In this document: piece by piece, positions 48,916 through 50,928 of the stretch
Layout: every line of letters begins with the position of its first letter
How positions within the stretch are numbered: position 1 is the first letter of the stretch
Source: Thermococcus piezophilus
GTDB lineage: Archaea; Methanobacteriota_B; Thermococci; Thermococcales; Thermococcaceae
Direction of reading: 5' to 3'
Assembly: GCF_001647085.1 (NCBI RefSeq)
Contig: NZ_CP015520.1
Location: 1,054,001-1,118,000, forward strand
Length of the DNA stretch: 64,000 nucleotides
The notes under the pieces: generated by a model
What the model saw: the letters and a program-made list of their open reading frames with translations, nothing else
Databases searched by the model: none
What the model was told of the DNA's origin: nothing
Made by a program: the position numbers and the translations under genes

Positions 48916-50091
48916 TCATTCCCTTACGAAAACCATCAGTCCCATCGCCAGCATGTTCATCAGCGCCGCGAAGGTGAATGAGTAGGTCAGTGAATAACTC
49001 TGCCAGAGCCAGCCCGCTATGACAGACGCTGGGAAGACGAAAACTCCGAAGACGGTGTGGTATGCTCCTATTACCGTTCCCTTCTCGAATTCCTTCGCTA
49101 AGTCAGCCATGTAGGCCCTCGGAATAGTGTCCTCGATGGCTATGTAGAGGCCGTAGAGAACGAAGGCCGCTATGAGCGTGTATGGGTCCTTGGCGTAGGC
49201 AAAAGTGAGGGAAGTGAGTGCTGCCAGGCCAAAGCCAATGGTTATCATCTTCTTCTTTCCGAATGTGTCCGAGTAAGTCCCGATGGGATAGGCTGATAGG
49301 GCGTAGATTAGGTTGAAAAGCGCGTAAAAGCCCAGTCCCTGAACGACTGAGAAGCCGAGCTCTTTCGCCTTCCAGAGGGTGAAGGCGTAGCTGTACCTCC
49401 CGAGCGCGCCAATGGCAACCACGAGCAGGAAAAGGCGCAGGTTCTTAGATTTGAGAGCCGAGATGCCCTTTACCTTCTTTACCTCGCCACCTTTGTCTTT
49501 GACCAGCAGTATGACGATGACGACTCCAATTAAGCCTGGAATAGCTGAGAGCAGGAAGAGATAACGGTAGGCGGTTTCCGCGGGCAGGCTTTTGAGTAGC
49601 TCCAAAATCGCTATCGCCGTGAGCGGTCCGGCCACCGCTCCAAGGGTGTCCATCATCCTATGGAAGCCGAAGGACTTGCCCGTCTTTCCCTTCTCGCTTG
49701 ATTCAGCTATAAGCGCGTCCCTCGGGGCGGTTCTTATTCCTTTGCCCACCCTGTCGAGAATCCTTAGGGTTACAAAGTCCCACCACGAGTGGACGAATGC
49801 AAGGGCCCCCTTGGTGATAGTGGAAAACAGGTAGCCGAAGGCCACGAAGAGCTTCCTTTTTCTAAAGCGGTCGCTGAAGTAGCCGAAGAGCACTTTAAAC
49901 AGCGAGCTCAGGCTTTCGATGAGGCCCATTATCGAACCGCTCGCGGCCTTTCCTATTCCGAGCACGTCAGTTAGATAAGTGGGCACAACTGGGGCTATCA
50001 TCTCGCTGCTCATGTCGTTGAGGAAGCTGACTATTCCGAGCAGGAAGACGTTCCAGCTCACTCCCAGAATTTTCTGTTCTTTCTTCTCCAT
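48916..50091 (-). CDS. MFS transporter in PadR operon
   Basis: A 391-residue 12-helix major facilitator protein with MFS motifs (FGYFSDRFRKRK between TM2 and TM3; IGTYSDTFGKKKM). It starts four bases after the PadR stop, so translation is coupled. Because PadR repressors often control drug exporters, a role in multidrug or toxic-metabolite export is likely; substrate unknown. Confidence 0.88.
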   Translation of the reverse strand: MEKKEQKILGVSWNVFLLGIVSFLNDMSSEMIAPVVPTYLTDVLGIGKAASGSIMGLIESLSSLFKVLFGYFSDRFRKRKLFVAFGYLFSTITKGALAFVHSWWDFVTLRILDRVGKGIRTAPRDALIAESSEKGKTGKSFGFHRMMDTLGAVAGPLTAIAILELLKSLPAETAYRYLFLLSAIPGLIGVVIVILLVKDKGGEVKKVKGISALKSKNLRLFLLVVAIGALGRYSYAFTLWKAKELGFSVVQGLGFYALFNLIYALSAYPIGTYSDTFGKKKMITIGFGLAALTSLTFAYAKDPYTLIAAFVLYGLYIAIEDTIPRAYMADLAKEFEKGTVIGAYHTVFGVFVFPASVIAGWLWQSYSLTYSFTFAALMNMLAMGLMVFVRE

Positions 50092-50094
50092 TCC

Positions 50095-50385
50095 TCATTC
50101 CTCCAGCAGCTCCCTGCAGAGCTCTCTAACCCTTGCCTTACCTTCCTCCAGTGCTTTTCTTCCAGGATCGGTTATCTCGTAGATTCTGACGCGCCTCCCT
50201 TCCCTGATCTCCCAGCGGCTCTTTAAGAGTCCACTTTTTTCCATGCTGTGCAGGAGTGGGTATATTGTCCCTGGGCTGACGTGGTAGTCGTGTCTTTTGA
50301 GTTCCTCCATCATAAAGGTGCCCGTGATGGGCTCCCTCCCTGCGTGGTGGAGGACGTGCAGAGTTAGGAAGTCGCGGTACTTCAT
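50095..50385 (-). CDS. PadR-family regulator of adjacent MFS transporter
   Basis: A 96-residue PadR-type winged-helix repressor (VSPGTIYPLLHSMEKSGLL, EGRRVRIYEITDPGRKAL). ATG 50385 follows GGTG six bases upstream. Its start codon is inside the palindromic cluster 50384-50413, so it probably represses its own operon, which includes the MFS gene. Confidence 0.9.
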   Translation of the reverse strand: MKYRDFLTLHVLHHAGREPITGTFMMEELKRHDYHVSPGTIYPLLHSMEKSGLLKSRWEIREGRRVRIYEITDPGRKALEEGKARVRELCRELLEE

Positions 50386-50413
50386 ATCGAACACCGATAT
50401 CGAAATCCGATAT
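50384..50413. promoter_or_regulatory. Double overlapping palindrome operator
   Basis: The sequence has the form ATATCG-N5-CGATATCG-N5-CGATAT: two identical ATATCG-N5-CGATAT palindromes sharing the central CGATATCG. The minus-strand TATA (TTTTTTAAATC, about 50419-50429) lies just upstream, so a dimer bound on each palindrome would cover the transcription start. This is a clear candidate PadR operator. Confidence 0.75.
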
Positions 50414-50433: not shown

Positions 50434-50820
50434 TCACTCGAGGACGTGCTTCTCAAGGACGTAGCAGTGGAAGGCTCCTTCAAAGACCTTCTCGTTCTTC
50501 CCGTTGAACACTTCGGCTTTCACGAGCTTCTTTCTACCCAGGTCTTCCTCAACCTTCGCCTTTGCGAGTAGTCTTTCGCCTGCCTTGACCGGCTTGAGGA
50601 ACTTTACCTCTGCCTTTCCAAGGACGACGGTCGGCTCGTTCACCACCAACATAGCAGCATAATCGGCAAGCCCGAAGGTGAAGCCGCCGTGAACGAGGCC
50701 GTACTCGTCGACGGCCATCTCTTCCGTCGTCTCAAGAACCACCTCAGCGTAGCCGTCTTCAATCTTCATGGGCTTTCCAACGAGCCTTTCAGAGGTTAGC
50801 CTGTGAGTTCTCTGCTCCAT
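50434..50820 (-). CDS. Hotdog-fold thioesterase (PaaI-like)
   Basis: A 128-residue hotdog-fold protein: EYGLVHGGFTFGLADYAAML is the helical sausage with the HGG motif of PaaI-type thioesterases, which hydrolyse acyl-CoA or related thioesters. ATG 50820 follows GGTGAT. Substrate unknown. Confidence 0.83.
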   Translation of the reverse strand: MEQRTHRLTSERLVGKPMKIEDGYAEVVLETTEEMAVDEYGLVHGGFTFGLADYAAMLVVNEPTVVLGKAEVKFLKPVKAGERLLAKAKVEEDLGRKKLVKAEVFNGKNEKVFEGAFHCYVLEKHVLE

Positions 50821-50928
50821 AACTATCACCGCTTTTTCTACTCTTTAAGAGCTTAAACCACTATCGGCCGAAAGGCCCAGATGCAAAGGTTTATTTATTC
50901 CGCCACCCTAAAAACGTTAGGTGGTCGT

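What the first reader, a model, noticed from the sequence alone, without database searches (positions are those of the whole stretch)
50384..50413. Two interlocked ATATCG-N5-CGATAT palindromes at the padR-MFS start
The pattern ATATCG-N5-CGATATCG-N5-CGATAT spans the putative transcription start and the padR start codon. Sharing the middle CGATATCG suggests that two PadR dimers bind cooperatively, or in mutual exclusion, giving a sharp switch of an MFS exporter.
Basis: seen in the sequence. Interest (0 to 1): 0.65.

Follow-up and report, generated by a model that had tools for sequence, protein, structure and literature searches.

The report
PadR repressor's interlocked double operator
A 30-letter stretch of DNA at the start of a regulator-plus-pump gene pair in a heat-loving microbe is almost certainly the switch to which that regulator binds, and nearly the same switch recurs next to related regulators of chromate and other pumps across Bacteria, including about 1,900 plasmids, many of them antibiotic-resistance plasmids.

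Summary
Window 50384-50413 reads ATATCG-N5-CGATATCG-N5-CGATAT: two 17-bp palindromes with centres 13 bp apart. The exact 17-bp site occurs nowhere else in this 1.93-Mb Thermococcus genome. It lies just downstream of padR's TATA-like box. Its last arm contains padR's ATG, and the spacer before that arm holds a Shine-Dalgarno-like GGTG.

All 68 Thermococcaceae orthologues examined have the double site, and all are followed by the same MFS gene. Genus members lacking this padR lack the site there.

The same 13-bp interlocked architecture lies upstream of related PadRs in Dehalococcoidia (25/30), and of chrA-padR chromate-efflux modules in Proteobacteria, Staphylococcus, Fusobacteriota and Actinobacteria, including the integron module on about 1,900 plasmids. 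Only 1 of 936 control windows scores as high. A blind search with the 34-nt operator found one plasmid place, and it lies directly upstream of a padR-chrA pair.

Best explanation: an autorepressed exporter operon, with PadR dimers on both interlocked sites blocking transcription initiation until an unidentified ligand releases them. The operator assignment is strong. Simultaneous or cooperative double binding and a sharp switch are inferred only. PadR-exporter autorepression is known; this operator type and its cross-domain conservation appear undescribed.

The parts
50397..50413 (-). distal palindrome ATATCGGATTTCGATAT (TATA side); arms conserved, 5-nt spacer variable among orthologues
50384..50400 (-). 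proximal palindrome ATATCGGTGTTCGATAT; arms conserved, spacer nearly fixed
50395..50402 (.). shared middle element CGATATCG (right arm of one site, left arm of the other); nearly invariant in Thermococcaceae
   Evidence: positions 10-17: 60 distinct sequences, information 1.6-2.0 bits
50419..50427 (-). TATA-like box TTTTTTAAA (predicted)
   Evidence: start of the T/A-rich box usually 12 nt upstream of the distal palindrome's TATCG (51 of 68 orthologues)
50392..50395 (-). Shine-Dalgarno-like GGTG inside the proximal spacer (inferred)
   Evidence: proximal spacer region reads GGTGT, GGGAT, GTGAT or GGTGC, while distal spacers show no such preference
50383..50385 (-). padR ATG start codon, inside the outer arm of the proximal palindrome
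   Evidence: same in-frame position in 66 of 68 orthologues
50095..50385 (-). padR: 96-aa PadR-family winged-helix regulator, Rv3488/ChrI-like
   Evidence: Pfam PF03551 E 2.5e-18; PDB 5zhc (Rv3488) E 1.2e-22; NCBIfam Rv3488 family E 4.2e-31 but below its cut-off
48916..50091 (-). MFS transporter gene, 3 nt after the padR stop: presumed operon partner and regulated exporter
   Evidence: Pfam MFS_1 E 6.9e-47; found directly downstream of padR in all 68 Thermococcaceae loci

Best explanation
This is the autoregulatory operator of the padR-MFS operon. PadR, a small winged-helix dimer, recognises TATCG-N5-CGATA. Two such sites are interlocked with centres 13 bp apart, so that the inner arms fuse into CGATATCG. 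In this genome the array fills the space between the TATA box and the start codon, so bound PadR should stop RNA polymerase from being recruited or from starting. Most likely two dimers occupy the array together. When a ligand that the exporter removes (unknown here; chromate is likely for the chrA-linked relatives) binds PadR, the dimers leave and both padR and the MFS pump are made. Shown by sequence: the motif, its conservation, its one fixed spacing, its link to this PadR subfamily, and the operon partner. Inferred: binding by PadR itself, repression, double occupancy, ligand release. In Thermococcaceae one spacer also serves as the ribosome-binding site and one arm contains the start codon, which explains why only that spacer is conserved.
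For: Thermococcaceae: all 68 upstream regions score at least 16 of 20 arm bases at 13-bp spacing (66 score at least 18), and other spacings give almost none. In real-sequence control windows of the same loci only 1 of 936 reaches 16. Genus members without the orthologue lack the site there. MFS follows padR in all 68, while the upstream thioesterase gene is missing from the fetched flank in 19 that keep the operator. Dehalococcoidia: 25 of 30. A blind pattern scan of 197 genomes hit 27, and 22 of those hits lie directly upstream of this padR. A blind search of 72,556 plasmids with the 34-nt operator gave one place (E 0.02), in Tistrella, directly upstream of padR (48% identity) and chrA (60%). 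The same array lies upstream of chrA or padR in alpha-, beta- and gamma-proteobacterial, staphylococcal, fusobacterial and actinobacterial modules. Four PadRs outside the subfamily score 10-13. Both sites matter: outer arms are constrained like inner arms in Bacteria; in 8 Dehalococcoidia both sites show the same asymmetric form, TATCA-N5-CGATA, as direct repeats; the spacers do not obey a single 30-bp dyad.
Against: No binding or expression data. Some relatives have only one good palindrome (L056, L058) or none found (L084, L085, L088, several Acidobacteria). The two sites overlap by 4 bp of arm, so simultaneous binding could clash. The ligand and the MFS substrate are unknown.
Confidence: 0.86

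Rival explanations
1. PadR operator, but only one dimer binds at a time: the shared CGATATCG makes the two sites mutually exclusive, so the array raises local affinity or gives two alternative registers rather than a cooperative switch.
For: The arms overlap by 4 bp. Single palindromes exist in some relatives (L056, L058).
Against: One site would suffice for one dimer, yet both sites and the exact 13-bp spacing persist across Archaea and several bacterial phyla. Two dimers on one operator are already known for a PadR protein (LmrR, PMC5428041) and for QacR.
Confidence: 0.3
2. The motif is the site of another Thermococcales regulator, such as TrmBL1 (TATCAC-N5-GTGATA), and merely lies next to padR.
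For: Similar palindrome with an N5 spacer. TrmBL1 binds upstream of a PadR gene, PF1476, in P. furiosus (PMC4706686).
Against: The half-site distance differs (TATC-N7-GATA against TATC-N9-GATA). No TrmBL1 motif stands out upstream of any of the 68 orthologues (best 9 of 12 matches, like shuffles). The motif follows this PadR subfamily into Bacteria and is absent at that place from genus members lacking the padR.
Confidence: 0.03
3. The conservation reflects translation signals or RNA structure (ribosome-binding site, start codon, leader hairpin), not a DNA operator.
For: GGTG plus ATG explains part of the proximal half. The start codon overlaps the arm in 66 of 68.
Against: The distal palindrome lies upstream of the expected transcript start. 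In Bacteria the array lies at varying distances from the padR start or in front of chrA. The arms, not the spacers, are what is conserved there.
Confidence: 0.04
4. Chance, or conservation by common descent without function.
For: Orthologues of one genus share ancestry.
Against: Zero shuffles match. The motif is retained at PadR protein identities down to 40-50% across domains, with 1 of 936 control windows as good.
Confidence: 0.01

Closest known systems
ChrI (PadR-family regulator of the chrI-chrA1 chromate efflux operon, Bacillus cereus SJ1; PMC2936356)
   Same: PadR-family regulator in an operon with an efflux gene. ChrI expression is chromate-inducible. Several padR-chrA modules fetched here carry the same interlocked operator.
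   Different: The Thermococcus partner is an MFS pump, not ChrA. The paper reports no operator sequence. The ligand in Thermococcus is unknown. ChrI's own sequence was not compared here.
Rv3488 of Mycobacterium tuberculosis (PadR; PDB 5zhc, 5zhv, 5zi8, 7wh4)
   Same: Best solved relative (E 1.2e-22). Rv3488-like genes in Streptomyces and Rhodococcus carry a core CGATATCG, and in Rhodococcus the full array.
   Different: Score 107 against the NCBIfam equivalog cut-off of 140, so not called a member. M. tuberculosis's own promoter was not examined.
LmrR / canonical PadR operator (ATGT-N8-ACAT; PMC5428041, PMC4534193)
   Same: PadR winged-helix repressor that controls its own gene and an exporter. 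Two dimers can share one operator (2:1 on the lmrCD operator).
   Different: Different half-site (TATCG/CGATA) and spacing; two interlocked full palindromes rather than one imperfect repeat.
TrmBL1 / Thermococcales glycolytic motif (TATCAC-N5-GTGATA; PMC4706686)
   Same: Palindrome of similar look near Thermococcales promoters.
   Different: Half-site distance differs by 2 bp; no such motif at these promoters; global sugar regulon against a single-target operator.
QacR and RTP (two overlapping dimer sites on one DNA element)
   Same: Two dimers on overlapping palindromes or sites (QacR as cited in PMC5428041; RTP from own knowledge). PadR also matches Pfam RTP weakly (E 2.6e-4, below cut-off).
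   Different: Unrelated (QacR, TetR family) or different function (RTP, replication termination).

Membership tests
PadR family (PF03551) | PadR winged-helix domain above the gathering score | tested here: met
   66.3 bits against cut-off 27, residues 11-81
PadR family (PF03551) | canonical operator ATGT-N8-ACAT | tested here: not met
   the conserved site is TATCG-N5-CGATA. The canonical site is not itself required for family membership, which is defined by the protein domain; this bears on subtype
NCBIfam NF053635 Rv3488 family regulator | score above the curated equivalog cut-off (140 bits) | tested here: not met
   107.1 bits: a relative, not a called member
ChrI-type PadR-exporter autoregulatory module | padR adjacent to an efflux gene, in one transcription unit | tested here: met
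   MFS 3 nt downstream of padR; conserved in all 68 Thermococcaceae loci. Co-transcription itself was not measured
ChrI-type PadR-exporter autoregulatory module | chromate efflux transporter ChrA as partner | tested here: not met
   the Thermococcus partner is MFS_1; no ChrA hit in these loci
ChrI-type PadR-exporter autoregulatory module | shared operator | tested here: met
   interlocked 13-bp arrays upstream of chrA/padR in plasmid modules
ChrI-type PadR-exporter autoregulatory module | induction by chromate or another ligand | not testable with these tools
   needs expression or binding assays
TrmBL1 (TGM) operator | TATCAC-N5-GTGATA near the promoter | tested here: not met
   best match 9 of 12 in 68 upstream regions, as in shuffles

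The most novel reading that the evidence does not exclude
One PadR subfamily carries the same interlocked two-dimer operator across Archaea and at least six bacterial phyla. It works on top of entirely different transcription machineries and is attached to interchangeable exporters (MFS, ChrA, TauE/SafE, Na/Ca exchanger): a portable 'operator plus sensor' cassette whose DNA code has been kept while the pump was swapped. The operator of the chrA-padR module on about 1,900 plasmids is thereby predicted.
Probability: 0.6. Interest if true: 0.65.

Novelty: new variant of a known kind. Interest (0 to 1): 0.54.

Why it matters
Operators usually turn over quickly; one kept recognisably from Thermococcales to proteobacterial integrons is unusual and gives a direct view of how a DNA-recognition code stays fixed while target genes change. 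It predicts the regulatory site of the chromate-efflux module on about 1,900 sequenced plasmids, mostly of Enterobacteriaceae, and offers a two-dimer PadR operator that can be tested with a small thermostable protein. It also gives a regulated, single-target promoter for hyperthermophilic archaea.

Tried and rejected
TrmBL1/TGM site: no motif above shuffle level. Third site in the array: apparent 26-bp periodicity is the TATA box overlapping the pattern. One single 30-bp palindrome: distal and proximal spacers are not reverse complements beyond low levels. Conservation of the proximal spacer as an alternative in-frame GTG start: variants reading TCGTGATTCGATATG put a stop in that frame, so a ribosome-binding role fits better. 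The operator belonging to the upstream thioesterase: that gene is missing from the fetched flank in 19 of 68 loci that keep the site. A literature search for the operator string TATCGGTGTCCGATA found nothing; CGATATCG together with PadR gave eight papers, of which the only one about PadR regulators in its title has it in cloning primers. One viral contig (L140) holds an exact array, but no padR was found within the 1.9 kb held. No structure prediction was run, since Rv3488 is a close solved relative and DNA docking was not on offer.

Full report
OBSERVATION. The + strand at 50384-50413 reads ATATCGAACACCGATATCGAAATCCGATAT, exactly the pattern described. It is the only match in the window at up to three mismatches, and no dinucleotide shuffle reproduces it. 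In the whole 1.93-Mb genome the 17-bp palindrome ATATCG-N5-CGATAT occurs exactly only here, twice; one site with a single mismatch lies elsewhere. This is therefore not a dispersed motif but a single-locus one.

ANATOMY. The genes run on the minus strand. Read in that direction: the thioesterase gene ends at 50434; then a TATA-like TTTTTTAAA (50427-50419); then the distal palindrome (50413-50397); then the proximal palindrome (50400-50384); then padR from its ATG at 50385-50383; then the MFS gene 3 nt after the padR stop. With the usual archaeal TATA-to-start distance the transcript should begin inside the array (inference; no 5' end was mapped). padR encodes a 96-aa PadR protein (PF03551, E 2.5e-18) whose closest solved relative is Rv3488 of M. 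tuberculosis (E 1.2e-22). The MFS gene is an MFS_1 transporter of unknown substrate.

CONSERVATION IN THE FAMILY. Forty-five of 61 genus genomes hold a close PadR orthologue, and every one has the double palindrome directly in front of it. Genomes without the orthologue either have no match to the single-palindrome pattern or, in two cases, one isolated match at an unrelated place. Adding other genera of the family gives 68 upstream regions. All reach at least 16 of 20 arm bases at a spacing of 13 bp and 66 reach at least 18, while no other spacing comes near. All 68 are followed by the MFS gene; the thioesterase gene is missing from the fetched upstream flank in 19. Among 60 distinct sequences the middle CGATATCG is close to invariant (1.6-2.0 bits per position), the outer arms are strongly conserved, the distal spacer is variable and the proximal spacer is nearly fixed (GTGTT after the arm's G). 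The variants of the proximal spacer (GGTGT, GGTGC, GGGAT, GTGAT) all resemble a Shine-Dalgarno sequence about six bases before the ATG, and in 66 of 68 the ATG sits in the outer arm in frame with PadR. I infer that operator, ribosome-binding site and start codon are superimposed, which accounts for the asymmetry of conservation.

BEYOND THE FAMILY. The nearest bacterial relatives of this PadR are encoded next to chrA, the chromate efflux gene. The same interlocked array, with the same 13-bp spacing, lies in front of chrA or padR in these modules: E. coli integron TATCGAATTTCGTTATCGAATTTCGCTT, P. putida TATCGTGTTTCGATATCGTAATTCGATT, and Novosphingobium and Rhizobium; further Staphylococcus AATCGAATTACGATATCGTAATTCGATT, Agrobacterium, Hydrogenophaga, Cryobacterium, Rhodococcus, Cetobacterium and a clostridial plasmid. 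The region holding the integron version is present, at 99% identity or more, on 1,936 of 72,556 plasmid records. In Dehalococcoidia 25 of 30 relatives have it. Two more distant Thermococci families also have it (L107, L108), and several but not all Acidobacteria. In 936 control windows from the same Thermococcaceae and Dehalococcoidia loci only one reaches the score that all Thermococcaceae and 25 of 30 Dehalococcoidia promoters reach. PadRs outside the subfamily score 10-13.

BLIND TESTS. A blastn search of the plasmid collection with the 34-nt operator alone gave a single place (E 0.02), in Tistrella mobilis. It lies directly in front of a padR (48% identity) followed by chrA (60% identity to the integron ChrA). 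A pattern scan of 197 Dehalococcoidia genomes with up to two mismatches gave 27 genomes with a hit, and 22 of the hits lie directly upstream of this padR. These tests did not use the position of padR and so support the assignment independently.

MECHANISM. Co-occurrence with one PadR subfamily, position at its own promoter, and absence without the gene make PadR autorepression the best explanation. What remains inference is occupancy. Three facts favour two dimers: the spacing is fixed at 13 bp over very large distances; outer arms are as constrained as inner ones in Bacteria; and in eight Dehalococcoidia both sites carry the same asymmetric variant TATCA-N5-CGATA, that is, two equal copies in tandem. 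Spacers do not obey one long dyad. A PadR precedent for two dimers on one operator is LmrR (PMC5428041). Against it, the arms overlap by four bases and some relatives keep only one palindrome. I put simultaneous double binding at about 0.6 and mutually exclusive or single binding at about 0.3.

PARTNERS. In Thermococcaceae the partner is always the same MFS family; in Dehalococcoidia it is a 35-41% identical MFS, ChrA, TauE/SafE or a Na/Ca exchanger. All are membrane transporters. The regulator tree shows the Thermococcaceae proteins as one clade (99/99) among bacterial relatives, separate from three of the four other PadRs included (the fourth, on a very long branch, could not be placed); many inner forks are unresolved because the protein is short.

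COMPARISON WITH THE KNOWN. ChrI of B. cereus is a PadR-family regulator in a chromate-induced chrI-chrA1 operon, without a reported operator (PMC2936356). LmrR uses ATGT-N8-ACAT-like sites (PMC5428041). TrmBL1 of Pyrococcus uses TATCAC-N5-GTGATA and binds upstream of a PadR gene, PF1476 (PMC4706686); I could not tell whether PF1476 is the orthologue, but no such motif stands out in any of the 68 promoters. A search for the operator string TATCGGTGTCCGATA in 5.4 million open papers found none, and CGATATCG together with PadR gave no described operator that I could find. Subscription papers, including work on Rv3488, are not covered.

VERDICT. The general kind (autorepressed PadR-exporter operon) is known; the interlocked operator and its conservation from Archaea to plasmid-borne chromate modules appear undescribed.

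Noticed in passing
L062:1200-1227 (E. coli integron plasmid), L065, L070: The chrA-padR chromate module of class 1 integrons has an unannotated interlocked operator upstream of chrA; the region is near-identical on about 1,900 plasmids.
   Followed up: partly
L074, L075, L078, L080 and L090 (Dehalococcoidia): The same PadR type is followed by TauE/SafE or a Na/Ca exchanger instead of MFS or ChrA, hinting at interchangeable exporters and perhaps oxyanion ligands.
   Followed up: partly
L140:1188-1215 (viral contig IMGVR_UViG_3300009285_005054): An exact TATCG-N5-CGATATCG-N5-CGATA array in a viral contig without a padR in the 1.9 kb held; possibly an operator captured by a phage, or chance.
   Followed up: partly
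window 50434-50829 (-): A hotdog-fold (4HBT, PaaI-like) thioesterase gene directly upstream of padR, linked in most but not all Thermococcaceae; its relation to the exporter is unknown.
   Followed up: partly
L016 and L055 (orthologue loci): The padR ATG in the operator arm is ATT in these two species while the operator is intact; the start codon must lie elsewhere (GTG in the spacer or a downstream ATG).
   Followed up: no
L160 and L161 (Streptomyces plasmids): Rv3488-like padR genes have the core CGATATCG with weaker outer arms, beside DoxX and permease genes; suggests that the M. tuberculosis Rv3488 promoter should be checked.
   Followed up: no
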